Shown here piece after piece: positions 7,434 to 19,112 of a stretch of 64,000 nucleotides of DNA (the first letter of the stretch is position 1; the number at the start of each line of letters is the position of its first letter). Both the position numbers and the translations under genes were made by a program. The notes under the pieces are model-generated. The model was not told where the DNA came from. It searched no databases and saw only the letters and a list, made by a program, of their open reading frames with translations. The stretch is from Paraglaciecola sp. MB-3u-78 (GTDB taxonomy: Bacteria; Pseudomonadota; Gammaproteobacteria; Enterobacterales; Alteromonadaceae), in assembly GCF_002835935.1 (NCBI RefSeq), contig NZ_PJCF01000006.1, positions 124,001 through 188,000 on the forward strand, read 5' to 3'.

Positions 7434-7965
7434 ATGACCACTCAAAATGATTGGCAAACTGCTTTGTCTACAAGTTATGAGCAATTAAATAACTACTTGG
7501 TTTTACATGTTCCTCAACTGATTGGCGCACTATTTCTTATATTATTAGGATGGCTAATTGCTTGGGTATGCAGCAAATTAACGTTAACAACCGTTAAGTT
7601 GATTAGCCGGATGTGGCAAAAAGTGGTTCGAGAATTGGCAGTCACTGGGGTAGCAGAAATTAAGGCATCCCATGCAGCGGTCATTAGTAAGACGGTTTTT
7701 TGGGTGGTCATGCTGTTTTTTATGGCAGCGGCAACGTCTAGTCCAGGGCTCGATTTTTTCTCTTCTTGGTTAAATACACTTCTTGGTTATGTGCCTCAGC
7801 TGTTAGCCACCGTTTTTATTGTGATGGCTGGTTATCTATTGGGCAATATTGTGGGTGTGATGGCTGAGAGTGCTGCAGAAGCGTCAGTATTTAGTTAATC
7901 TGCGTCTTTAGGAAATATCGCAAAATTTTCTATCTTCTTTGTTGCACTAGTCGTCGGTATTAATC
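7434..7965 (+). pseudogene. Broken CmpX/MscS-type gene: TM-helix domain, in-frame stop, channel domain lost
   Basis: The frame starts well (AAGGAAAC before the ATG) and encodes 154 residues with two TM-helix repeats (VPQLIGALFLILLGWLIAW and VPQLLATVFIVMAGYLLGN), as in CmpX-like members of the MscS superfamily. A TAA at 7896-7898 interrupts it. Past the stop the same frame continues to make family sense (SLGNIAKFSIFFVALVVGIN) up to about 7965, then turns into unrelated sequence. The beta/channel domain is therefore missing. A short translated product is possible, but decay is the simpler reading. Confidence 0.7.
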
Positions 7966-8092
7966 GACCGTGGGCTTCGCCCTCTTGCCTTCAAAATTCA
8001 ATGTGTCGCACTAGAAACTGAAATCCGCTAGCTCTAATAAATATAATTTTATAGTATTCTATTGTTATCACACTTACATCCATTAGGAATTT

Positions 8093-8920
8093 ATGCTCAA
8101 AGATATCCTGTTACATCCGGTTTTTATCTCTCTAATAGTGATCAGCATCGCATTTGGTTTAAAAGCGATTGTAGATAAATTAGCGCAGCAACGGGCCGAA
8201 AAAAAACAGCTCGATGTCAGAAATACATCACATAACATCAAGCATTTTATTAACTTCGTTATGATGTTATTGCTGTTATCTACATGGGCCGCTGAAATTC
8301 AGAACTTTGCATTATCCATTGCGGCTTTTGCTGTCGCTATTGTGATTGCTACAAGGGAGTTTATTCAATGTGTGATCGGTTTTTTCTACCTAGTCACAAC
8401 AAGGCCTTTTAAGATAGGTGATTGGATCCAAGTGGGTGACTATTTTGGAGAGGTGGTCGAAACTGACTGGATAAAAACAACCTTGCATGAAATTGACATC
8501 AATACTTATCAGTTTTCAAGAAAAACAGTCTATATTCCCAACAACAAACTGATAACCACCCCCATTAAAAACTTAAACTTTAGTAAGCGTTATGTCACCC
8601 ATCATTTTATGATTGTACGTAAAGAAAGTCTTAACCCATATTCCATTTATGAAACATTATCTAATAAAGCCAAGCATTATTGTGAGGATTTTATTGATGT
8701 TGCATGTCGATATAATTCCGTTATCGAAAGAAAACTTGATGCGCAGATATCAGGTCCAGAGCCGCAAATCCACTTTGGTACAACTGAAATTGGAGAATTT
8801 AAAGCGAGCTTTACATTATTTTGTCCTATTGAAAAAGCTCTGGATATCGAACATAAATTGACCAAGGATTTTATGACGCTTTGGTATAAGGAACTGAGCA
8901 AGCAGAGCGCTAAAACTTAA
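8093..8920 (+). CDS. MscS-family mechanosensitive channel
   Basis: 275 residues. N-terminal TM at about 10-28, a second at about 55-75, then the pore-lining helix region AAFAVAIVIATREFIQCVIGFFYL followed by the MscS signature RPFKIGDWIQVGDYFGEV, which begins the beta domain; the C-terminal alpha/beta part runs to the end. MscS channels open on membrane tension and release solutes after hypo-osmotic shock. An AGGA lies upstream of the ATG. The pore helix is less Gly/Ala-rich than E. coli MscS, so gating may differ. It is the first intact member of an MscS-rich region. Confidence 0.85.
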   Translation: MLKDILLHPVFISLIVISIAFGLKAIVDKLAQQRAEKKQLDVRNTSHNIKHFINFVMMLLLLSTWAAEIQNFALSIAAFAVAIVIATREFIQCVIGFFYLVTTRPFKIGDWIQVGDYFGEVVETDWIKTTLHEIDINTYQFSRKTVYIPNNKLITTPIKNLNFSKRYVTHHFMIVRKESLNPYSIYETLSNKAKHYCEDFIDVACRYNSVIERKLDAQISGPEPQIHFGTTEIGEFKASFTLFCPIEKALDIEHKLTKDFMTLWYKELSKQSAKT

Positions 8921-8941
8921 TATTCAAGGATTGCGTAAAAA

Positions 8942-9044
8942 GCGCACTGGATAAATATACCTGTTTAATTCAACAATAAAATATTTGTTAAAACAGAGGC
9001 ATTTTTCAGAAGGGGTAAACTGTTATTGCCTTGTTCCAGTGCGC
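8942..9044. repeat. Inverted repeat element, GCGCACTGG...CCAGTGCGC
   Basis: Nine-base perfect terminal inverted repeats (8942-8950 and 9036-9044) enclose about 85 bases that can fold further (CTGTTT..AAACAG and AACAA..TTGTT pairings near 8961-9000). Runs of A flank both ends (8937-8941 and 9045-9048). It could be a small MITE-like element or a structured transcript end after the MscS gene. No ORF inside. Confidence 0.45.
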
Positions 9045-9222
9045 AAAACTTTCCTTATCAAAAGCTAATCTTACATATCACTATCTGTTAGACGGAATGA
9101 AATTCCAATTGGTCACAATGTGAATTTTAAAATTAATATTCTATAAATGTGACTTCTTTGACTTCCGACTAGTCTATATCTTTGAATACTATTAAAGCCT
9201 GTTTATATACAGCAGAGAAAAC

Positions 9223-9393
9223 ATGAAAAAATCAATTGATGCTACCACTCTATTTTTAACAATCGATTCTGGGTGTGCATCCAAAAAATCATTCACCGAG
9301 CAGGAAATGTTTGCTGAATATCCAGTAGCATCTAACGAGACAGTTGAAGGACGTGCACAAAATAGACGCGTTGAAATACTGATAATGAATTAG
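9223..9393 (+). pseudogene. OmpA-family lipoprotein scar (internal deletion joining signal peptide to C-terminus)
   Basis: A 56-codon frame begins MKKSIDATTLFLTIDSGCAS, which resembles a lipoprotein signal ending in a GCAS lipobox, and ends VASNETVEGRAQNRRVEIL, the characteristic last segment of OmpA-type peptidoglycan-binding domains (peptidoglycan-contact RxxNRRVEI region). The roughly 100-150 residues normally between them are gone, so an in-frame internal deletion of an OmpA-like lipoprotein gene is the best explanation. It lies immediately upstream of crfX-cmpX-sigX, a module that in Pseudomonas is adjacent to the OmpA-type gene oprF. Confidence 0.65.
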
Positions 9394-9457
9394 TCAAACG
9401 ATTAGAAAGGGCTAAGCATAGTGATTGGCTCTGTTTACGTTTAGATGGAGAGTCGTC

Positions 9458-9703
9458 ATGAGCCCAGATGAAGAACAGTTAAAAAAGTTGTTCAATGAAA
9501 GTGCGCCTGTCACTGATGAGAACAAAGCGTTGCAACAGGTCCTTAGGAAATCTTCGAATACAACCGCAATCAAGGATGTTGGGAGCCTTTTTATTGGATG
9601 GGTTTGGGTTTTGTTGTTAGGTTTTGGTGCGTCAGCATATTCAGCGAAACGCCGCTTTGACTTGCATCAACAGCAAAAAAAACACAGAAATAACAAAAAT
9701 TAA
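9458..9703 (+). CDS. crfX: CrfX-like small membrane-associated protein
   Basis: 81 residues from the ATG at 9458, chosen because GGAG sits 7 bases upstream; a TTG at 9425 would extend it without a binding site. Pattern: an acidic/amphipathic N-terminus (DEEQLKKLFNESAPV, then ALQQVLRKSS) followed by one hydrophobic segment (DVGSLFIGWVWVLLLGFGAS) and a basic tail. This order, and its place before a CmpX-like gene and an ECF sigma gene, match the Pseudomonas crfX-cmpX-sigX arrangement. The symbol rests on synteny and weak resemblance; function is unknown beyond that association. Confidence 0.62.
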   Translation: MSPDEEQLKKLFNESAPVTDENKALQQVLRKSSNTTAIKDVGSLFIGWVWVLLLGFGASAYSAKRRFDLHQQQKKHRNNKN

Positions 9704-9737
9704 TATTACACACATTACTTAAAAATGGAGTACCGAC

Positions 9738-10589
9738 ATGAATATAGATATTTGGACACAATCGTTTGGCAATGCCTTGTCGCGGTTTTGGACAGAAATT
9801 GCGGGATTTTTGCCTAATTTGATTGCCACAATAATTTTCATTTTTATTGGGTTGCTATTATCTAAATTTTTTACAAAATGGTTTGCTAAGGTTATTGAAA
9901 AAATAGGCTTCAATACGCTTTGCGATATGCTGGGTATAGAGAAGGGTTTAAAAACCTTAGGATTTAAATTAAGCCCATCGTCACTCGTGGGGCGGATCCT
10001 TTATTTGTTTTTTGTGTTGATAATTCTTGTTGCGGGTGCAGAAACCTTAGGGTTAGACAGACTGTCGTCTTTGTTGGATGAATTTGTGTTGTATCTACCT
10101 AAATTAGTGGGAGCACTCGTGATTGCTGTCATCGGTTTGTTTATTGCCAAGGCAGGCAAAACACAAGTAGAAGCGTCTTTTGAAAACATGGGCATTGAGT
10201 TCGGTGACGCTGCAGCAAGAGTGCTTCAAATGTTGGTGATATTTATCACTTTTTCTTTAGTTGTTGGTCAACTGCAATTGGAAACTGAACTACTCAATAC
10301 GATTTTTACTGTCTTGATCGCGAGTATGGGGATCGCGTTGGCGTTGGCGTTAGGTTTGGGAACTAAGGCTATTGCAAATAGTATTGTTTCGGGAATTTAT
10401 GCAAGAGAACAGTTGTTACCTGGAGATGAAGTTGAATTTAAAGGTTTTACTGGGAATGTAGTCCAGGTTAGCACAGTCAACACCATTATAGAAAACAAGG
10501 ACGGACTGCAATTAAGTATTCCTAATCAAGACTTATTAACTCAGACATACACCATAACTAAGTTGGCTGAACGCTGGGAAGAGTCGTAG
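9738..10589 (+). CDS. cmpX: CmpX-like mechanosensitive-channel-type membrane protein
   Basis: 283 residues with two TM-helix repeats (GFLPNLIATIIFIFIGLLLSK and YLPKLVGALVIAVIGLFIAK), a further TM (about 165-185), a Gly/Ala/Leu-rich pore-like helix (ASMGIALALALGLGTKAIANS) and a short MscS beta domain with LLPGDEVEFKGFTGNVVQ. It lacks the long C-terminal alpha/beta domain of canonical MscS, as CmpX does. In Pseudomonas, CmpX affects SigX activity and membrane homeostasis. It sits 34 bases after crfX and 12 before the sigma gene, so one transcript is likely. Confidence 0.8.
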   Translation: MNIDIWTQSFGNALSRFWTEIAGFLPNLIATIIFIFIGLLLSKFFTKWFAKVIEKIGFNTLCDMLGIEKGLKTLGFKLSPSSLVGRILYLFFVLIILVAGAETLGLDRLSSLLDEFVLYLPKLVGALVIAVIGLFIAKAGKTQVEASFENMGIEFGDAAARVLQMLVIFITFSLVVGQLQLETELLNTIFTVLIASMGIALALALGLGTKAIANSIVSGIYAREQLLPGDEVEFKGFTGNVVQVSTVNTIIENKDGLQLSIPNQDLLTQTYTITKLAERWEES

Positions 10590-10601
10590 AAACGATTAAC
10601 T

Positions 10602-11177
10602 ATGAAAAGCACAAGGCCCGTTGTCAGTAGTGTTTCAGAGAGGTTGTCGCAGCTAGATGACAATGAGCTTGTACGAATTGCGCGTATACAACTGCCCTAT
10701 GTGACAACTGCATATGAAGTGATTTTTCATCGATATCACTCAAAGTTAATACAAGTCTGTTTTAGATATCTTGCTTCAATAGAAGAGGCAGAAGAGACTG
10801 TGAGCGATACAATGTTAAATGTGTTTAACAATATACATCGCTTTGAAGGACGTTCCAGTTTTAAAACATGGATTTATCGGATTGCTTATAATCAATCTTT
10901 GAATCGATTAAGGAAAAAACAGCTCACCCTTGTATCTATAGATGAGGCTGATTTTATAGCTGAAGAACAAGTTGAATCGGAGGCATTTGAAGATAATGAG
11001 AAGGTTGATCTTTGGCTATCCACACTCAGTGTGGAAGAGCGCTCAATTGTCGTTTTTAGGATTATTAGTGGACTGAAGTTTAGTGAAATTTCAGAGATAG
11101 TCGATCAGAATTTAAGTACGGTGAAGATGCGCTATAAACGTGCATTGGAAAAGATACCAAGCTATGCAGACATCTAG
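10602..11177 (+). CDS. sigX: ECF sigma factor, SigX-like
   Basis: 191 residues with sigma region 2 (about 38-105: YHSKLIQVCFRYLASIEEAEE, then FKTWIYRIAYNQSLNRLRKK) and region 4 (about 132-185: LSVEERSIVVFRIISGLKFSEIS, STVKMRYKRALEK). The 12-base gap to cmpX and the absence of a following anti-sigma gene fit the SigX group, whose activity is linked to membrane state rather than to a classical anti-sigma factor. It would direct RNA polymerase to envelope-stress promoters. No autoregulatory promoter could be assigned by eye. Confidence 0.82.
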   Translation: MKSTRPVVSSVSERLSQLDDNELVRIARIQLPYVTTAYEVIFHRYHSKLIQVCFRYLASIEEAEETVSDTMLNVFNNIHRFEGRSSFKTWIYRIAYNQSLNRLRKKQLTLVSIDEADFIAEEQVESEAFEDNEKVDLWLSTLSVEERSIVVFRIISGLKFSEISEIVDQNLSTVKMRYKRALEKIPSYADI

Positions 11178-11322
11178 ACTATTACATAAACACAATGTAT
11201 TAGCATATCCTGATATTTAACAGCGTTTTCCTTTTTCCACTCTTATATGCAGGTGAACTAGGATTCAGTTATCACAATCTGTCCCTTTGGAAGGGATTTA
11301 AGGGCTGTTCTAAAATTAAGCT

Positions 11323-12594
11323 CTAATTAAGGGTTTTTGGAATGCTGTGCAGTAACTCATCGTAGTGTGCATAATTCTTAGTCATGTCCATTTTATTAAT
11401 AAACTCAGAACAGGTTAAATAAGACAATAAATAACGTGCATCTTTGACCCAAGGTGGTAAGTATTTCGCCGGTTGGCAGAGTCCCATTTCTTCTAATTTG
11501 TATAAAACGGGTATGTCTTCAATATCCATTTTGCCGCAAAATAATAACTTCAGGCAGTCTGCCCTGCCGTTAGCCGCTATGGCTTTTAAAAAATTATGCA
11601 CGCGGATAAATCCTTCTAAATAGACCCCATCTTTAGTAAAGGGTGCACCGCCGGTTAACACGCCACCTCGGAATACTCTCCGGGTGTTTTCGTAGGCCTG
11701 TGATTCGTTGCCAATCCGCTCTAAAAAATAGTGATATACGTCTAAAAAGTCGGCTCCTTCGATTGCCATTTGTATCGCCAGAATACGATCTGCAAGCCTG
11801 CGAAGACGGTCTAAATCTATTGAGTTGGTAATATACTCAGAGAATACGGCTAAACCTTCTTGTGTTTTAGTGGTACCTGGATGACCAGCGGCCAATATTT
11901 TAAGATGCGGTTGATTTAAGCCATTAATAGATGTGGCGACATGAATATGTGCTTCATGATTAATTAGCTGCTGCGCATCAAGGTCAGTAAAACATGCCGT
12001 TTTTCTTATCCTGATAAGCTTTGGGTTTGCTAACGCATTAGCAGAAAGCTCGTCTACAATTTCAACTTTTGGGGCTTCGTCACCAAACATTTTCACAACT
12101 GCAGCCTGCATTTGCTGGGCGATATCAGAGGCGAGGTAACACATTGGAGGGGGAGCACCTAAGTCGTAGGTTGCGTAACTGCTAATTTGTTTGTCAAAAG
12201 TATTGGCTAATTCAAGAGGTGTGGATTTGCCGTCGGCAAAAGGGTTGGTTGGTTTACCATATAGTTTTTCAGAGAATTCATAAAACTTCTGGGTGCCTGC
12301 TGCCGCCATCATTAAAGCACCATATTCAAGCTTGATAGACACACGTTCTAACCAGTTATCTATATCTGTATTTTTAAGCAGTGATCTAGCTTGATTCACT
12401 AATACTAAGGTTTTGCTAGGGTCAAATTGAAGATAGTTAACCTTAGGCAGTTCTTTAGCTTTATCCCCAAAGAACTGACGCTTAATATCTCTGTTCCATT
12501 CAAGATGAGACAGTATTCGAATCGGTTGGCTGGCACTATATAAGATGGAGCTGATCTTACAAAAACGCTCTTTCTCTAGTTCTTCTTTATTCAT
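11323..12594 (-). CDS. DUF1704 / QEGLA-motif metallopeptidase-like protein (MATCAP-related)
   Basis: 423 residues. A zinc-type HExxxH motif (His213, Glu214, His218, in NHEAHIH) is followed by the family's QEGLA at 245-249, whose Glu can act as third ligand. This is the DUF1704 family, annotated in bacteria as 'flavohemoglobin expression-modulating QEGLA motif protein'; eukaryotic relatives (MATCAP/KIAA0895) remove C-terminal tyrosine from tubulin. The bacterial substrate is unknown. Cytoplasmic, no signal peptide. It is the last gene of a minus-strand run DUF432-mscS-gss-this gene, separated from gss by a strong inverted repeat. Confidence 0.85.
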   Translation of the reverse strand: MNKEELEKERFCKISSILYSASQPIRILSHLEWNRDIKRQFFGDKAKELPKVNYLQFDPSKTLVLVNQARSLLKNTDIDNWLERVSIKLEYGALMMAAAGTQKFYEFSEKLYGKPTNPFADGKSTPLELANTFDKQISSYATYDLGAPPPMCYLASDIAQQMQAAVVKMFGDEAPKVEIVDELSANALANPKLIRIRKTACFTDLDAQQLINHEAHIHVATSINGLNQPHLKILAAGHPGTTKTQEGLAVFSEYITNSIDLDRLRRLADRILAIQMAIEGADFLDVYHYFLERIGNESQAYENTRRVFRGGVLTGGAPFTKDGVYLEGFIRVHNFLKAIAANGRADCLKLLFCGKMDIEDIPVLYKLEEMGLCQPAKYLPPWVKDARYLLSYLTCSEFINKMDMTKNYAHYDELLHSIPKTLN

Positions 12595-12624
12595 TAAATA
12601 TTACATTCCATGCTAATCACCAGA

Positions 12625-12673
12625 CACTAGCAAAGCTTAACCCAAAAACTATTTTCTTTAAGCTTTGCTAGTG
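12625..12673. promoter_or_regulatory. 16-bp perfect inverted repeat between gss and the QEGLA gene
   Basis: The arm CACTAGCAAAGCTTAA (12625-12640) is exactly complementary to 12658-12673, with a 17-base loop. It lies in the 107-base gap between gss and the downstream QEGLA gene. There is no T-run after either side, so it is not a standard intrinsic terminator. An intercistronic mRNA-stabilising hairpin, an attenuator, or an operator are all possible. Confidence 0.6.
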
Positions 12674-12701
12674 CGCTATTACGACTGTATGTTCTACTTA
12701 A

Positions 12702-14561
12702 TTATTCGTGGCAAACTTGTAGTGCAATACAATCACTGTCTTTGCCAATAATCATTGAGGGATCAACACGTGTGCCACTTCCAGCATAGTTTCCTTGGGC
12801 GGTAAAAGTACAAATCTGTACATAAAGATTGTCAATACATGGCAATGGAAACAGTTGTTGGTAAATTTTTTCTCTGTTGTCAAATACCCCCATTTTTTCA
12901 GCTAATATATTGTGGTCTTGATCAATCAACTGAATATTTGCACCACATCTTCCGACTATCGGTTTAACAACGTATCCGGATTTAACTAGCTCACTATTGA
13001 GTTCGAAATCAGCATTCAATAACAAGGGGTGATTTGGGAATAGAGACCATAGTATCGGTAGTATTGCTTTATTACTTGGAATGAGTGTCCACATCGGCTC
13101 AAATACCATAATGTCATCGTTTAGCAGTACATCGGATAAAGATGGGGAGCTATCGAGAAAGTCAGGATCTCTTTGAGTGCCCTCCTCCAAACGCAATTCA
13201 TCTAATGCGGTTTCCCATGCCCACGTTTTCCAAACCCATTTAATCAGGTTTCCATTACCATCCTCGATTTTTTGATTTGCATTCCACCGAAGCGAGTCCA
13301 ACCCTTTGACAAGCTCACAATGGTACCCCGCTGCCTCAATCACATTTTTCATAAAAAGTGCGTGATAGGTTTCTTCGGGATCATCGTCTTGAAGCACATG
13401 CACAATAGAGTCGATTTTACAGCTCTTCCATGCCTTCACTAGGTGCTTAAATAGCTCGTTACCTGCGTCAGTTCCACCTTTTACATCAAAGTGTTTAAGC
13501 CACTTACCTTGAACTTTACCCACTTCCATATAACAAGACGCAGAGTCACAATTGTATTCATATACCTTTAGACCGTTCTCAGACATGGCAAAATCAAAGC
13601 GACTTGTAATCAACTGGTTTTTTCTATTTGCCCAAGATGTTCTTATCTTCGACAGGATTTTTTCAGGCAAACCAAATTTACCCAATAACTCAGGGTGCTC
13701 AAGTGCATAATCAGTGGCGTGTAAAAACATTTGGTGAAGCTCATCAGTAGCCGATTCTAGAGCCACTTTAGCGGTAGCAGAAATCTGATAATATTTTTTT
13801 TCATAGGAGGCGGAAGAGGAAAGCTTGTGGCCCTCCATCATTTCGACAAATGCGTTTTCATCTTCATTCGCCAAATTAAGCCATGGTGTGCCTATTTTGC
13901 TATTGTCTGTGGCTTCACATGAGATAATGTTAAACATCTCTTTGTTGGACGCGTCTAACGTAATGGCGTGAGTTGGATCATCGGTTTGTAGCACCCACCC
14001 CAAAATAGTTGAGTCATTTGATGGACATCGAAGCCAGTAGTCTCCTCTGGTGCCTACTTTAGCTTTAATTTCTCTTGAAAAATTTTGTCTATCTGGCCAT
14101 TTTGCAAAGTCTTGGTTTTGTTCAACGACCCTGATCTTGTCCTCATAAACTTCTGTGATAATAGCGACATGCCCAGTTTCTTCAAATTCACCGCCCTCAT
14201 CCCAGATCAATAAACATCCTGGCTCAGGGCGTCGCTGAGAACCATTTTTAAATGCATTCAGGGGCAATTCTTGGCTGTTAACTAAGTCCCGTACATAACG
14301 AAGTCGAAAAATTTCGTATGCCATAGCCACATCGTTAAAAATATAACCTTTATTGATATACAACCAACGTCGCGCAAACTCTACGCATTGCCATTTATAT
14401 CCCATGTAAATCCCATCTACGTAACTTCTATAATGGCTGCGACTGGGGTAGGCCTCTTCATTAGCTGTTTCATAATCTGAAGAATAGGAGATAACACCAC
14501 CTGGTGCGATGCCTAATGACTCGCCAAATTTAAGATCACCTGATGTAATATTTTTAGTCAC
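12702..14561 (-). CDS. gss: Bifunctional glutathionylspermidine synthetase/amidase
   Basis: 619 residues, the same length as E. coli Gss, and alignable by eye end to end. The N-terminal CHAP amidase domain (about 35-195) has Cys59 in KWQCVEFARR, His131 in ETGHVAII and Glu147 in VVEQNQ, the known E. coli catalytic residues. The C-terminal ATP-grasp synthetase (about 210-615) has VYEYNCDSASCY, WKTWAWETA, PSNKAILPILWSLFPNH and VKPIVGRCGANI. It joins glutathione to spermidine and can hydrolyse the conjugate. Start is GTG with GGAG upstream. It lies 63 bases after the MscS gene in a four-gene minus-strand cluster. Confidence 0.95.
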   Translation of the reverse strand: MTKNITSGDLKFGESLGIAPGGVISYSSDYETANEEAYPSRSHYRSYVDGIYMGYKWQCVEFARRWLYINKGYIFNDVAMAYEIFRLRYVRDLVNSQELPLNAFKNGSQRRPEPGCLLIWDEGGEFEETGHVAIITEVYEDKIRVVEQNQDFAKWPDRQNFSREIKAKVGTRGDYWLRCPSNDSTILGWVLQTDDPTHAITLDASNKEMFNIISCEATDNSKIGTPWLNLANEDENAFVEMMEGHKLSSSASYEKKYYQISATAKVALESATDELHQMFLHATDYALEHPELLGKFGLPEKILSKIRTSWANRKNQLITSRFDFAMSENGLKVYEYNCDSASCYMEVGKVQGKWLKHFDVKGGTDAGNELFKHLVKAWKSCKIDSIVHVLQDDDPEETYHALFMKNVIEAAGYHCELVKGLDSLRWNANQKIEDGNGNLIKWVWKTWAWETALDELRLEEGTQRDPDFLDSSPSLSDVLLNDDIMVFEPMWTLIPSNKAILPILWSLFPNHPLLLNADFELNSELVKSGYVVKPIVGRCGANIQLIDQDHNILAEKMGVFDNREKIYQQLFPLPCIDNLYVQICTFTAQGNYAGSGTRVDPSMIIGKDSDCIALQVCHE

Positions 14562-14624
14562 TTTAACTCCACTCCCAGTGACATTTTTGTGGTTGTTTGC
14601 ATACTTTTAACAAGTCACTTGTTT

Positions 14625-15464
14625 TCATTTCGTGATCTCGTTTATAGAAACAGGTATAGGTTTTGTGGCTTCCCCAGAATATAAACTGATATGAGGAAAC
14701 GGAATTTCAATGTTTTGTTCATCGAATGTTTTTTTGATTTCTTGATACATACTGTTTTTTAAAGCCAGAAAATTTTCTTTTTTAGCCCAGACTGACAGTT
14801 GGATGTCAACGGAGGAGGAGCCAAAGCCAAGTAAAATAAATAAGGGTGCGGGTTCATCTAAACACAGCGTATTTTTTGTCGCTACATTGTTGAGTATTTC
14901 TTTTACTCTCTGTATATCCTCTTTATAGGCTATTCCGATTTGAAGATCAGCTCGCCTAATTGGAAATCTGGTCAATGTAGTCACTTGTGTTTTTATCATA
15001 GATTCATTCGGAATTCGGACAAACAAGTTATCAAAGGTCCGAAGTTTTACTGACAGCAGATCGATGGAAATCACTTCTCCAGTTGTCGACTCGACTCTAA
15101 TGATATCTCCGACAGAAAATGGTCTTTCCATCATCAAAAATAGTCCACTTATAAGGTTGGATGCGGATGTTTGTGATGCAAAACCAATAGCCACACTAAA
15201 AATACCTGCTGCGCCCAGTACAACACTTAGATCAAATCCAAGTTCTTTCATCACTGAAATAAAGGTAAGGATTAAAATCCCATAAAACACTAAACGTTTA
15301 AGCAATATCATGCTGTGTGGTGTGAGGTTTGCCACCTTAAAACGCCCAACGCCGTTTCTGGCAAAACGAGCAAGTAGGTAACCAATAATAAGTATTGAGA
15401 AGCCTTTGCCAATGGCAAAGACATGCCATTGCTCCATTAAATTCAGTGTTGTACTGGTTTCCAT
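14625..15464 (-). CDS. MscS-family mechanosensitive channel (in gss operon)
   Basis: 279 residues: three TMs (about 18-35, 53-72, 78-100) with pore helix LGAAGIFSVAIGFASQTSASNLISG and the beta-domain signature RPFSVGDIIRVESTTGEVISI, then an alpha/beta C-terminal domain ending IEIPFPHISLY, as in typical small MscS. It opens under membrane tension. The start has AGGAAAA upstream. It lies 28 bases after the DUF432 gene and 63 before gss, so it is probably cotranscribed with both. DUF432 next to an MscS gene is a recurrent pairing to my knowledge; with gss it is unusual. Confidence 0.92.
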   Translation of the reverse strand: METSTTLNLMEQWHVFAIGKGFSILIIGYLLARFARNGVGRFKVANLTPHSMILLKRLVFYGILILTFISVMKELGFDLSVVLGAAGIFSVAIGFASQTSASNLISGLFLMMERPFSVGDIIRVESTTGEVISIDLLSVKLRTFDNLFVRIPNESMIKTQVTTLTRFPIRRADLQIGIAYKEDIQRVKEILNNVATKNTLCLDEPAPLFILLGFGSSSVDIQLSVWAKKENFLALKNSMYQEIKKTFDEQNIEIPFPHISLYSGEATKPIPVSINEITK

Positions 15465-15492
15465 TGTAAAATTTTCCTAAGGTTGCCTTTAC

Positions 15493-16278
15493 TTAAGCCA
15501 CTAAACTTCTAATTGACCGCATAAATGTATTTTCATCAGCCATTTCCCTTGCTGGTGAGATTAATGTTAGATCCGTTTTTTCGCTTTCTTTTGTTAAGTT
15601 TTTAATAGCAAAGGACGGACGGTCACCATCTAAGTGATGTATCAAACACACCTTGTCAGTCCAAAACTGATGCGTGGCGTCAACATAAAGGTTTAAAAAT
15701 GGGGCCGGGAGGCTAATGCGTTCTATGGTCAATACTTCATCATGTTCATTAGATATGTTTATTGTGGTGATGGCTCGGTGTGAACGTTTTTGGATGTTAT
15801 CTAATGTGACTTTTGCATCGGTGTACTTTGAGTAGCATAGTTCACCGACCATTGTATTGGGTCCAAACCATGAATCAGATGGCAGCCAGAATGGAAGGTC
15901 ACTGATTGGTAACCTTCCTTCATGAGCATAAAAAGCCAGCCATAAAGGAGAGCTGACATAGAGTTCTATTTTCTCTCCAGGAAGTACATTGAGAGCAGAG
16001 TGAGGCCTAACAATGATGGAACGGTCAGCCAGTAGTGGTTTAGCGATTAGGCTGTTCTGGGTGTTTTTAACCAAGTAGCGTTGAGGTAGGATATCTATTA
16101 CAGGGTCCGTAAACGTTGCCCTCTCTAATACCAGCTCTTCAAAGCTCTCTTCATTAGTCTTTTCATTCGAAATTAGCCACTCGGCATCTTTGCGTTGTAC
16201 AGATATTTTGCGTTGACCAATCCGCCAAGTTTTAGCCTCATTTAACTCAAAATTAATATCACCCCACCACTTTTTCAT
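15493..16278 (-). CDS. DUF432 family protein
   Basis: 261 residues matching DUF432 by its opening WWGDINFELNEAKTWRIGQRK and by the block PGEKIELYVSSPLWLAFY followed by WFGPNTMVGELCYSKYT. No signal peptide or TM; beta-rich and presumably cytoplasmic. Function is unknown. DUF432 genes are often beside MscS channel genes, here 28 bases upstream of one, suggesting a channel-linked role. It is the first gene of the DUF432-mscS-gss-QEGLA run. Binding site before the ATG is weak (AAGAG). Confidence 0.78.
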   Translation of the reverse strand: MKKWWGDINFELNEAKTWRIGQRKISVQRKDAEWLISNEKTNEESFEELVLERATFTDPVIDILPQRYLVKNTQNSLIAKPLLADRSIIVRPHSALNVLPGEKIELYVSSPLWLAFYAHEGRLPISDLPFWLPSDSWFGPNTMVGELCYSKYTDAKVTLDNIQKRSHRAITTINISNEHDEVLTIERISLPAPFLNLYVDATHQFWTDKVCLIHHLDGDRPSFAIKNLTKESEKTDLTLISPAREMADENTFMRSIRSLVA

Positions 16279-16813
16279 TTTTTACTCTTTTTAGTCTCAA
16301 TTGTTTCTAAAGGCACTGAATATATATTTTTACTTTGATAAGAATTAAATTCAAACCACATCATCATGCATAACTATCCTAGTCTTTTGTGAGCCGTAAA
16401 TATTCTTTAATATACTGGCTCAAAAAGGATATATGTATATAACATTTTTTTAGCTAGCTAATTATCACCATTATCTAACGCCAAACTTGCTTTAGAGAGA
16501 CTTTTCAATGCCTGTTATTTTGAGGCACTAACACTAAGGGTTGCACCTAACCCAACACACCTTAATTAGGCGATAGTTTCACTATCATTATGTGGGTATA
16601 TAGACGGTTCATCGTTCTAAAAAGACACAATCATTGTGAATTTATTTTTGGCGTTGCTAGTGCTACCTTGTTGTCAATATTTCTCAAGACCTGACACTAT
16701 TTGTTTAAATGGGATATGAAAGTCTTGGCTTCTATTGTATCTAGTCTCAAACTGAGAGTTAATCAGTTAATATTCTATAAGCTGAATGCAGCAAAACTAA
16801 AAAGGTGTATAGG
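16279..16813. other. Gene-free interval with short hairpins
   Basis: About 535 bases between the divergent DUF432 operon and the Na+/Ca2+ exchanger. No ORF is convincing. Three small hairpins occur in series near 16516-16580 (TGCCT..AGGCA, GGGTT..AACCC, GATAGT..ACTATC). It must hold promoters for both neighbours but no clear -35/-10 pair was assigned. Confidence 0.4.
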
Positions 16814-17779
16814 ATGATTTGGGCTACGTTAGCAATTTTGGTTGGATTACCTGTTCTTATCTGGAGCGCAGAACGGTTTATCCATGGTGCCTCTTTTACT
16901 GCCGGATATTTCGGTATTTCGCCGTTGTTTATTGGCATGTTTATCATTGGTTTTGGCACATCCGCGCCAGAAATTATCGTCTCTATTTTCGCCGCGATTC
17001 AAGGCAACGGTGGTCTTGCTTTAGGTAATGCGTTTGGTTCCAACATCACCAACATAACATTGGTACTGGGCACTACAGCTTTACTCAGCCCCATTATGGT
17101 GAAATCAGAAATTGTTAGAAAAGAACTGCCAATTTTACTCGCAATTACATTCTTTGCCGTTTGGCAGTTATTGGATCTTGAGGTTTCACATGATGATGCA
17201 TTCTCATTGCTTGGTATATTTGTATTACTGATTTCTTGGAGCGGATGGCAGGCGTTTAAGCAACCAAAAGATCAGCTGGGCAAGGAGGTGGCTATTGAGA
17301 TTACTGATAGTCAGCTTCAGCTCAAACCTCATCTAATTTGGTTAGCCGTAGGTTTAATTCTGTTGATTGTCAGCTCCAGAGTATTGGTGTGGGGAGCGGT
17401 TGAAGTCGCCCAATATTTTAAAGTCAGCGACGTGATTATCGGACTGACTATTGTTGGTATTGGAACCTCGTTGCCTGAGCTTATTTCTTCCATTATCGCG
17501 GTAAGGAAAAACGAACACGAATTAGCAATCGGTAACGTTGTTGGCTCCAATCTTTTTAATACGCTCGCTGTTGTTGGAATCGCGGGTGTGATTCAGCCGG
17601 TTCAGGTTGATGCTACCTTTTTGTACCGAGATGGCTTGTTAATGCTGGGCTTAACCGTAGCATTATTGATATTTTGCTTAGGAATAAGAGGCCCTGGAAA
17701 AATTAATCGGTTCAAAGGTTTAGCATTGATTTTGTGTTTTGTGGGCTATAATTTATATTTAGTCTCCACACAGTTTTAG
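16814..17779 (+). CDS. Na+/Ca2+ exchanger family protein (CaCA, YrbG-like)
   Basis: 321 residues from the ATG at 16814 (AAGG upstream; a GTG at 16805 would add three residues). It has the two inverted alpha repeats that form the ion path: GFGTSAPEIIVSIFAAIQG..LALGNAFGSNITN (about 50-80) and GIGTSLPELISSIIAVRKN..LAIGNVVGSNLFN (about 210-245), with acidic Glu in each (APE, LPE). About ten TMs in two halves joined by a polar loop near 150. Inner-membrane cation/Ca2+ antiporter. It converges on the large MscS gene. Confidence 0.9.
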   Translation: MIWATLAILVGLPVLIWSAERFIHGASFTAGYFGISPLFIGMFIIGFGTSAPEIIVSIFAAIQGNGGLALGNAFGSNITNITLVLGTTALLSPIMVKSEIVRKELPILLAITFFAVWQLLDLEVSHDDAFSLLGIFVLLISWSGWQAFKQPKDQLGKEVAIEITDSQLQLKPHLIWLAVGLILLIVSSRVLVWGAVEVAQYFKVSDVIIGLTIVGIGTSLPELISSIIAVRKNEHELAIGNVVGSNLFNTLAVVGIAGVIQPVQVDATFLYRDGLLMLGLTVALLIFCLGIRGPGKINRFKGLALILCFVGYNLYLVSTQF

Positions 17780-17804
17780 CATCCTTGCTCAATGTATCTG
17801 CAGA

Positions 17805-19112
17805 TTATTTTACAAAGCCTTCATTCAGAACTGTCACTTCACGTTGAGGGAATGGAATCGCAATACCGTTGGCTTTAAGCGTTTCAAGGATAATGAGCAG
17901 CAAATCTCCACCTACACGATTTTTACCGTCATCTATACCTTCAATCCAAAACTCAATAAACATATTCACACCGTTATCACCAAAGCTATCAATTTCACAA
18001 TCTGGCCGTTCTTCGAATGGTACATCCATACCACTGATAACCTGAGGATGTTCTGCAACCGCCTCTTTAATAATCTCTACCATTGCACGCACATCAGTGG
18101 CATAAGCAACACTGAAATCCACTCTATAACGTTGTTTGGGATCTTTATGAGTCCAATTAATAAGCAGCGAAGAAATAAATACTTCATTCGGGACTAAGAT
18201 ATCTTTACCGTCATAAGTTTCTAGTACCGCATGACGCATTTTAAACTCTCGGACAAATCCTTTTTTCCCGTCTTCCAGCTCGACAAAATCACCAATTGTC
18301 AGTGATTTATCTAATAAGATGATGATCCCAGAGATAAAGTTTGAAGCAATTGATTGCAAGCCTAATCCTAAACCGACACCGACAGCCCCACCAAATACGG
18401 CCAAAGCAGTTAGGTTAACTCCCATAATGTTAAGCAACAATATGAAAACAACGCAGAAAAGACCTACCTCAAATAATTTGGTAAATACTTCACGGGTGCT
18501 TATATCAAGTTTGTGTTGGTTACGAATGATATCTTTACCCACATTGTTGGATGCACGCCCAAGCCAGAAGAGAAGGGCCCCAAAGAACAATACTCGTGCA
18601 AGTCCATATAGGGTGACCTGGATATTGCCAACAGTAAGAGAAATTTCTTCAAGTACTTTGATAAAAACAGGAAGTACATCTAAAAGATGTAGCAAAAGAA
18701 TAGGCAGTCCTACCCAGCGAAACAATGCGGACATAAAAGTACTAGTGACAAATTCTTTGATAATAGAATAGACAAATAGCAATACTGCGATAGTGAGAGC
18801 GGCATTGATCAGCCACACTGAATATAAGGACGCCTCTCCCACAGAAAGTGAAATCCGCAGCAGCACGATAGCAACAAGGGGGTAAACGATACTGCCGAGC
18901 CTAGAAAGTATGCTGCCAAGTGGGTGCCCGATGGAGCTGGATTTTTTGTTGGCTAACAAGCTTCTTTTAATAGTTTTGGCATATATCCAGTAAGCAGCGA
19001 AATAACTCACCATAATTACAGTTGCTTGAATGTAAGTCGATGTTTCACTTAACTGCGACTGAGCTAATAGCCAAAGTTCATGAAACTTGTTAGCAAAAAA
19101 TTCTAGGTTCAT
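17805..19112 (-). CDS. Large MscS-family mechanosensitive channel
   Basis: 435 residues. Extra N-terminal TMs (about 25-45, 70-90, 98-118, 125-150, 165-185) precede the canonical MscS core: TM3 LAVFGGAVGVGLGLGLQSIASNFISG (Gly/Ala-rich, very typical), signature LDKSLTIGDFVELEDGKKGFVREF, beta domain, and C-terminal IPFPQREVTV. Medium-size MscS relatives of this layout are widespread; the role is tension-gated solute release or small-ion permeability. Single gene, facing the exchanger gene with only 25 bases between stop codons. Confidence 0.92.
   Translation of the reverse strand: MNLEFFANKFHELWLLAQSQLSETSTYIQATVIMVSYFAAYWIYAKTIKRSLLANKKSSSIGHPLGSILSRLGSIVYPLVAIVLLRISLSVGEASLYSVWLINAALTIAVLLFVYSIIKEFVTSTFMSALFRWVGLPILLLHLLDVLPVFIKVLEEISLTVGNIQVTLYGLARVLFFGALLFWLGRASNNVGKDIIRNQHKLDISTREVFTKLFEVGLFCVVFILLLNIMGVNLTALAVFGGAVGVGLGLGLQSIASNFISGIIILLDKSLTIGDFVELEDGKKGFVREFKMRHAVLETYDGKDILVPNEVFISSLLINWTHKDPKQRYRVDFSVAYATDVRAMVEIIKEAVAEHPQVISGMDVPFEERPDCEIDSFGDNGVNMFIEFWIEGIDDGKNRVGGDLLLIILETLKANGIAIPFPQREVTVLNEGFVK

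What the first reader, a model, noticed from the sequence alone, without database searches (positions are those of the whole stretch)
11323..16278. Four-gene operon: DUF432, MscS channel, glutathionylspermidine synthetase, QEGLA metallopeptidase
All four run on the minus strand with gaps of 28, 63 and 107 bases. Gss has all three amidase catalytic residues at E. coli positions and a full ATP-grasp half; the QEGLA protein has HExxxH (213-218) and is related to eukaryotic MATCAP enzymes that cut C-terminal tyrosine. An ATP-grasp ligase plus a carboxypeptidase-like enzyme next to a tension channel suggests either redox-polyamine control of osmotic response or a ligation/cleavage cycle analogous to tubulin tyrosination. 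The function is inferred, the gene set is seen.
Basis: partly seen in the sequence, partly recalled or inferred. Interest (0 to 1): 0.75.

Follow-up and report, generated by a model that had tools for sequence, protein, structure and literature searches.

The report
Channel with a dedicated unknown partner
Of the four neighbouring genes, two form a tightly linked pair seen in many bacterial groups, a tension-gated safety-valve channel and a small protein of unknown fold that looks like its dedicated partner, while the other two are local additions within one genus.

Summary
In detail: four minus-strand genes, DUF432, mscS, gss and QEGLA/MATCAP, with gaps of 28, 63 and 107 bases. They are not four equal partners.

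The core is DUF432-mscS. In 80 DUF432 loci labelled as 12 phyla (plus one doubtful bin), the same MscS subfamily lies directly downstream in 78; the other two end at a contig edge. In sampled genomes of the class the link also holds from the channel's side. DUF432 shows no clear membrane span and models as a mostly-beta protein without a PDB fold match. I read it as a dedicated soluble partner of this channel.

QEGLA joined the pair in this genus: 7 of 22 genomes have it, all 7 beside the pair, 4 overlapping mscS by 1-4 bases. Gss sits between them in 3. Outside the genus neither was seen beside the pair.

Gss looks like ordinary E. coli-type Gss with its own amidase, so a Gss/QEGLA 'tyrosination-like' cycle is weak. 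RimK, which recurs near DUF432-mscS and near QEGLA, fits a ligase role better.

No paper in the open-licence library holds the word DUF432.

The parts
15493..16278 (-). DUF432 protein, 261 aa, first gene of the core pair; proposed soluble partner of the channel
   Evidence: Pfam PF04254 21.1 bits; linkage; model pLDDT 86.7
14625..15464 (-). MscS-family channel, 279 aa, second gene of the core pair
   Evidence: three MscS Pfam domains; aligns to E. coli MscS
12702..14561 (-). Bifunctional glutathionylspermidine synthetase/amidase (Gss), 619 aa, inserted between mscS and QEGLA in 3 of 22 genus genomes
11323..12594 (-). QEGLA/MATCAP-type metallopeptidase, 423 aa, third gene added in this genus
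   Evidence: PF08014 405 bits; HExxxH and QEGLA glutamate; 7 of 22 genus genomes
16279..16804 (.). Intergenic stretch between DUF432 and the divergent Na+/Ca2+ exchanger gene; likely place of the operon promoter (inferred)
   Evidence: position only; scan not above chance

Best explanation
The real unit is a two-gene module, DUF432-mscS. The channel belongs to a distinct MscS subfamily. DUF432 is a soluble protein made just before the channel subunit and is its dedicated partner, most likely a cytosolic auxiliary subunit that binds the channel (perhaps through its conserved amphipathic C-terminal tail) and tunes its opening or closing. In this genus the module gained a third gene, the QEGLA metallopeptidase, and in one lineage gss lies between mscS and QEGLA. 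Shown: gene order, tight spacing, near-total linkage in the loci examined, lack of clear membrane spans in DUF432, catalytic motifs of QEGLA and Gss. Inferred: physical binding, effect on gating, cytosolic location, any action of QEGLA on the channel or on DUF432.
For: Linkage: 78 of 80 DUF432 loci in public genomes have the MscS (49-66% identical to the window's, while DUF432 is 27-39%) next downstream on the same strand; the other 2 run off the contig. In the class, 17 of the 18 other genomes with DUF432 have it. From the channel's side, 20 of 369 class genomes match at E<=1e-60; 17 of them (own included) have DUF432, one more is cut at a contig edge, and the two without are 42% and 37% identical. 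All 9 of 22 genus genomes with DUF432 have the pair. Spacing: median 13 bases in 102 pairs, 12 overlaps (start codons chosen nearest, so biased low; some loci counted twice). The pair is kept where gss and QEGLA are absent (G624, G627) and in two copies in Malonomonas rubra (L114, L116). In Acinetobacter baumannii the two genes are 9 bases apart. Linked MscS fall together in a quick tree, apart from most other MscS rows. DUF432: only 2 of 102 have a 19-residue hydropathy window above 1.6. Linked channels have invariant F95 and T99 opposite E. coli L109 and G113.
Against: Linkage shows a shared function, not contact. The DUF432 fold matched nothing, so no mechanism can be read from it. No fused DUF432-MscS protein was found; two loci flagged are overlaps. 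The 80 loci came from patterns built on six gammaproteobacterial sequences and are the best 80 of 149, so divergent DUF432 may behave otherwise. G592's linked MscS is only 38% identical; G479 has a broken DUF432 and no MscS on its 7.1-kb contig; G270 and G346 have related MscS without DUF432 and are not separated from the linked group in the tree. L078 has about 670 bases between the two genes. Most phylum labels come from metagenome bins. Other MscS channels work as homomers without a partner (recalled).
Confidence: 0.6

Rival explanations
1. DUF432 does not touch the channel. It is an enzyme or ligand-binding protein of the same osmotic response, co-expressed because both are needed together, for example handling a solute or ion that the channel releases.
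For: Conserved polar and charged positions such as E33, R67, D85-R86, D135, E146, R168 and N177 could form a ligand pocket; ion transporters recur nearby, CorA in 15 of 80 loci, Na+/H+ exchanger in 8, Na+/Ca2+ exchanger and CNNM in 6 each.
Against: The link is to one MscS subfamily with fixed order and tight spacing, whereas each transporter is nearby in a minority of loci.
Confidence: 0.2
2. A ligation/cleavage cycle: QEGLA trims glutamates or another residue from a protein C-terminus that an ATP-grasp ligase extends, and this tunes the osmotic response. The ligase would be RimK rather than Gss.
For: RimK lies within 5 kb of DUF432-mscS in 4 of 80 loci, in L153 and L106 as RimB, RimK and DUF432-mscS on one strand; beside QEGLA in L029, L254 and L255; and just beyond the mscK-like gene in the four gss-free three-gene genomes. 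The related TMCPs remove C-terminal residues and glutamate chains (PMC10499314, passages). Rlo proteases, paired with an ATP-grasp protein, are needed under hypoosmotic stress (PMC12239564, passages).
Against: Most of the 80 loci lack RimK. Orientation of RimK to QEGLA varies (convergent or divergent), and RimK-bearing operons usually carry RimB instead. No enrichment test was made and several loci are related. MscS and DUF432 tails show no common glutamate-rich end.
Confidence: 0.17
3. One reading: Gss makes glutathionylspermidine, which acts on the channel or marks stress, and QEGLA belongs to that pathway.
For: Gss lies between mscS and QEGLA in three genomes, in G625 with other flanks.
Against: Gss is beside the pair in only 3 of 9 genus genomes with the pair and none of 80 loci elsewhere; 12 of 22 genus genomes have full-length Gss, mostly away from the pair.
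Confidence: 0.06
4. No functional link: the four genes are neighbours by chance.
For: For gss and QEGLA alone the association is limited to one genus.
Against: DUF432-mscS recurs in 78 of 80 loci; QEGLA is beside the pair in 7 of 7 genus genomes that have it, with overlaps in 4.
Confidence: 0.05

Closest known systems
E. coli MscS (homoheptameric tension-gated channel)
   Same: Same domains; 4age_A matches residues 20-260 at E 1.3e-37
   Different: Distinct subfamily with V91, F95 and T99 opposite L105, L109 and G113, found behind DUF432 in nearly all loci examined; I recall no dedicated partner gene for E. coli MscS
Pfam DUF432 (PF04254)
   Same: 60 of 103 members match at E<=0.1, best 1.2e-6; the window's match spans model positions 13-122 of 123
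   Different: Function unknown. The Pfam match covers residues 89-198 only; the N-terminal WWG and C-terminal tail lie outside it. Of 14 control genomes only Methanosarcina acetivorans matched; its gene neighbours were not seen
MATCAP/TMCP tubulin carboxypeptidases (PF08014)
   Same: 405-bit Pfam match; HExxxH plus the E of QEGLA, like HExxxH plus EEG in TMCP1 (PMC10499314 passages)
   Different: Bacterial, substrate unknown; phmmer found no solved relative at E<=0.001
E. coli glutathionylspermidine synthetase/amidase (Gss)
   Same: Full length, same positions for catalytic C, H and E
   Different: Only the gene neighbourhood
RimABK and Rlo ligase-protease systems of Pseudomonas
   Same: ATP-grasp ligase plus peptidase; Rlo proteases are needed under hypoosmotic stress (PMC12239564 passages)
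   Different: Their peptidases are aspartic, not HExxxH metallopeptidases; the word mechanosensitive does not occur in that paper
P. aeruginosa cfrX-cmpX-sigX
   Same: 9425-11177 has a small gene, a CmpX-like MscS and a SigX-like sigma factor in that order; cfrX-cmpX unit known from abstract starts in a search listing
   Different: A separate plus-strand unit converging on QEGLA, not part of the set; naming by order and family, not by direct comparison

Membership tests
MscS mechanosensitive channel | Pore helix, beta-domain and C-terminal domain of MscS | tested here: met
   PF21088 26.8, PF00924 70 and PF21082 56.1 bits, all above cut-off
MscS mechanosensitive channel | Opens under membrane tension | not testable with these tools
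   needs electrophysiology
DUF432 (PF04254) | Score above Pfam gathering cut-off | tested here: met
   21.1 vs 21 bits, marginal; 60 of 103 relatives match at E<=0.1; three other members tested singly had no match at 0.001
Gss (NF007801 equivalog) | Score above NCBIfam cut-off | tested here: not met
   876.6 vs 882 bits; a sister-genome Gss scores 923.2
Gss (functional type) | CHAP amidase with C59/H131/E147 plus ATP-grasp half | tested here: met
   residue roles recalled
Gss (functional type) | Makes and splits glutathionylspermidine | not testable with these tools
   needs an enzyme assay
MATCAP (PF08014) | Pfam match, HExxxH and third ligand glutamate | tested here: met
   405 bits; H213, E214, H218, E246
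MATCAP (PF08014) | Removes C-terminal residues | not testable with these tools
   needs an enzyme assay
TIGR02421 QEGLA hypothetical equivalog | Score above NCBIfam cut-off | tested here: not met
   278.7 vs 338.65 bits
Tubulin-type tyrosination cycle | Ligase and carboxypeptidase acting on one protein C-terminus | tested here: inconclusive
   the ATP-grasp neighbour matches E. coli Gss full length; no shared substrate shown

The most novel reading that the evidence does not exclude
DUF432 is a dedicated auxiliary subunit of a widespread MscS channel subfamily, with a beta fold not matched in the PDB. That would make this a two-component mechanosensitive channel, with QEGLA and RimK-type enzymes as lineage-specific modifiers of it.
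Probability: 0.45. Interest if true: 0.75.

Novelty: new variant of a known kind. Interest (0 to 1): 0.58.

Why it matters
Bacterial MscS channels are the textbook example of channels that sense tension alone, as homoheptamers (recalled). A soluble partner gene kept beside one MscS subfamily in many lineages, Acinetobacter baumannii included, would mean that this subfamily is regulated by a second protein, and it gives DUF432 a testable role. The library searched holds no paper with the word DUF432; of 30 papers holding MscS, 'auxiliary subunit' and 'mechanosensitive channel', the 8 listed are not, by title, about a bacterial partner (listing only).

Tried and rejected
Gss-QEGLA as the functional heart: not seen outside the genus. 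Of 49 order genomes and 54 class genomes with a QEGLA match (own counted in both), 29 and 29 loci were returned besides the window's own and were searched to about 1.5 kb each side; none had Gss, DUF432 or the linked MscS; one (L256) had a distant MscS-like hit at 25%. Sixteen longer stretches (L034-L049) and two more (L266, L267) also had none. Matches without a returned locus were not read. Five other order genomes have both a QEGLA and a GSP-synthetase-type match (G013, G030, G039, G090, G230); by coordinates none is side by side.

Promoter and terminator scans: 17 promoter-like and 7 terminator-like sites against 24.6 and 6.9 expected, so no evidence on transcription. No Rfam family and no tRNA in the window.

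Fold of DUF432: two AlphaFold models and three Foldseek runs, best E 0.078, 0.17 and 0.17, TM by query length at most about 0.2, so no match. phmmer against the PDB: nothing for QEGLA at E<=0.001, one hit at E 1.3 for DUF432.

Osmoprotectant (NAGGN) link for the peptidase beside a solo gss: no NCBIfam match at 1e-10. Viral scan: no DUF432 relative. The careful tree did not finish and the quick tree was used; it held 61 of the linked channels I had (even-numbered loci only among L093-L172), and four rows that my script labelled 'unlinked' (L072, L078, L105, L226) are in fact linked or at a contig edge. No formal enrichment test was made for RimK, CorA or other neighbours. The archaeal gene context of DUF432 could not be reached. 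The organism was not identified.
Full report
What is there. The window holds four intact genes on the minus strand, in transcription order DUF432 (16278-15493), mscS (15464-14625), gss (14561-12702) and QEGLA/MATCAP (12594-11323), with gaps of 28, 63 and 107 bases. The Gss residues C59, H131 and E147 and the QEGLA residues H213, E214, H218 and E246 are in place.

Which genes belong together. I searched each protein in relatives. In 247 genomes of the order, QEGLA matched in 49 and Gss or its synthetase half in 83; by coordinates the two are adjacent only in the window's own genome. The closest QEGLA outside the genus (85% identical, G194) has none of the other three genes nearby. In 22 genomes of the genus, DUF432 is in 9, QEGLA in 7 and full-length Gss in 12. 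All 9 DUF432 genes are followed by mscS. Three arrangements exist: the pair alone (G624, G627); pair plus QEGLA (G614, G615, G617, G629), with mscS and QEGLA overlapping by 1-4 bases; and pair plus gss plus QEGLA (G000, G612, G625). G612's QEGLA is broken. G625 carries the four genes between other flanks. In quick trees of MscS and of DUF432 the two pair-only genomes group with the three four-gene genomes (support 93 and 85), so gss and QEGLA have probably come or gone around a stable pair.

The pair across bacteria. A scan of public genomes with a DUF432 alignment gave 80 loci (the best of 149), labelled Pseudomonadota, Thermodesulfobacteriota, Myxococcota, Nitrospirota, Chloroflexota, Deinococcota, Gemmatimonadota, Acidobacteriota, Bacteroidota, Latescibacterota, Krumholzibacteriota and Glassbacteria, plus one Planctomycetota bin that I doubt because its DUF432 is as close to the query as the Porticoccaceae ones. 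Phylum names for old labels such as Deltaproteobacteria are partly my reading. In 78 of 80 the MscS is next downstream; L154 and L163 end about 70 bases after the DUF432 stop. No Gss or QEGLA relative was found in any of the 80, within at most 5 kb each side. In the class, 19 of 369 genomes have DUF432; of the 18 others, 17 have the MscS downstream (in L078 after a gap of about 670 bases), and G479 has only a broken DUF432 and no MscS on its 7.1-kb contig. From the channel's side, 20 of 369 match at E<=1e-60: 17 shared with DUF432 (own included), G325 cut at a contig edge, and G270 and G346 without DUF432 but only 42% and 37% identical. The 102 pairs include repeats (the window's own locus, one locus fetched twice) and use the start codon nearest to the DUF432 stop, so the median gap of 13 bases is a low estimate.

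What DUF432 looks like. Over 103 sequences W34, G139, G145, Y149 and N177 are invariant and W4, W5, G21, E33, R67, D85, R86, P111, W113, S134, D135, W137, F138, T142, E146, C148, R168, P191, L195, W206, T207 and R244 nearly so; the consensus ends in a tail of the type RAFxxLF. The last 14 residues have a mean amphipathic moment of 0.40 against 0.21 in the body, above the protein's own 90th percentile in 63% of 102. Only 2 of 102 exceed a 19-residue hydropathy of 1.6. AlphaFold2 with 103 sequences gives mean pLDDT 86.7 and pTM 0.86, mostly strands, with a less certain C-terminal helix. No library of predicted cellular proteins was on hand, so a known but unsolved fold is not excluded.

What the channel looks like. 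It aligns with E. coli MscS over residues 20-260. By that alignment Q98 faces Q112, so V91, F95 and T99 face L105, L109 and G113, which I recall as pore seal and hinge of E. coli MscS. F95 and T99 are invariant and V91 nearly so in 45 linked channels. In a quick tree of 89 rows the linked channels fall together and 20 other MscS rows form a separate branch (support 88), but the long-branched G270 and G346 rows are not separated from the linked ones.

Neighbours. Around the pair, transporter genes recur by BLAST to one representative each: CorA in 15 of 80 (19 by single-linkage clustering), Na+/H+ exchanger 8, Na+/Ca2+ exchanger 6, CNNM 6; also MarC 7, PsiE 8 and TamA 13. Four of 80 carry RimK: L153 has RimB, RimK, DUF432 and MscS on one strand; L099 has a RimB-RimK fusion, an AstE/AspA-type gene, DUF432 and MscS on one strand; L106 has the same row with separate RimB and RimK; in L100 RimK and the AstE/AspA-type gene are followed by a Na+/H+ exchanger and then the pair. 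In the four gss-free three-gene genomes RimK lies just beyond the mscK-like gene on the opposite strand. RimK is beside QEGLA without DUF432 in L029, L254 and L255, and about 5 kb away in L042 and L044. In the window's own genome a RimK that passes its NCBIfam cut-off (444 vs 331 bits) and an AstE/AspA-type gene lie about 3.3 kb left of the window. I made no formal test of these frequencies and several loci are related. A longer QEGLA paralogue, fused to an N-formylglutamate amidohydrolase domain and beside a glutathione-synthetase-type ATP-grasp gene, occurs in L045, L047 and L048 by DNA match; Pfam was run on the L047 fusion and on the L045 and L047 ATP-grasp proteins. I recall that Iyer et al. 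2009 described such ATP-grasp/peptidase sets; that paper is not held and I saw only its citation.

How it most likely works. Fixed order, tight spacing and one-subfamily specificity point to DUF432 acting with the channel. I think it is a cytosolic accessory subunit; contact, location and direction of effect are inferred. QEGLA is probably a peptidase recruited in this genus, possibly acting on a C-terminus; its eukaryotic relatives remove tyrosine and glutamates (PMC10499314, passages). Gss looks like normal Gss and is the least attached member.

Literature seen. DUF432 as a whole word: 0 papers, so the 15 papers of the word-start search hold only longer DUF numbers. DUF1704: 1 paper, listing only. 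QEGLA: 1 paper, listing only. PMC12239564, PMC10499314 and PMC10092738: passages. PMC4431377 and PMC10219603: passages that are references only. CmpX/SigX papers: listing only. For amidoligase papers 10 of 38 were listed, and for RimK with channel or glutamate ligase 8 of 39.

Noticed in passing
7434-19112: Five ORFs with MscS-family Pfam matches within 12 kb (7434, only the conserved TM helix; 8093; 9738; 14625; 17805).
   Followed up: partly
9425-11177: A cfrX-cmpX-sigX-like unit on the plus strand, converging on QEGLA; the 92-aa first ORF has no Pfam match and is named by position only.
   Followed up: partly
L274:6736-8713 (left of the window): RimK and an AstE/AspA-type gene overlap or abut on the minus strand, about 3.3 kb left of the window start.
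   Followed up: partly
L153:3513-6663: Marinobacterium jannaschii has RimB, RimK, DUF432 and MscS in one compact row; a possible link between C-terminal glutamylation and a tension channel.
   Followed up: partly
L218:5158-14676; L219; L220: In three sister genomes solo gss lies in a similar cluster; in L218 (the only one scanned) the neighbours are circularly permuted ATP-grasp, Alpha-E, proteasome-like, transglutaminase-like and M42-like proteins.
   Followed up: partly
L211:8707-9976: QEGLA in G612 is split between frames: decay or sequencing error.
   Followed up: no
L045, L047, L048: Long QEGLA paralogues with an N-formylglutamate amidohydrolase-like part, next to a glutathione-synthetase-type ATP-grasp gene.
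   Followed up: partly
L114, L116: Malonomonas rubra carries two DUF432-mscS pairs on different contigs.
   Followed up: no
L090:5956-7704: Acinetobacter baumannii record (labelled plasmid, 1.02 Mb) has DUF432 annotated as hypothetical 9 bases before an MscS-family gene.
   Followed up: no
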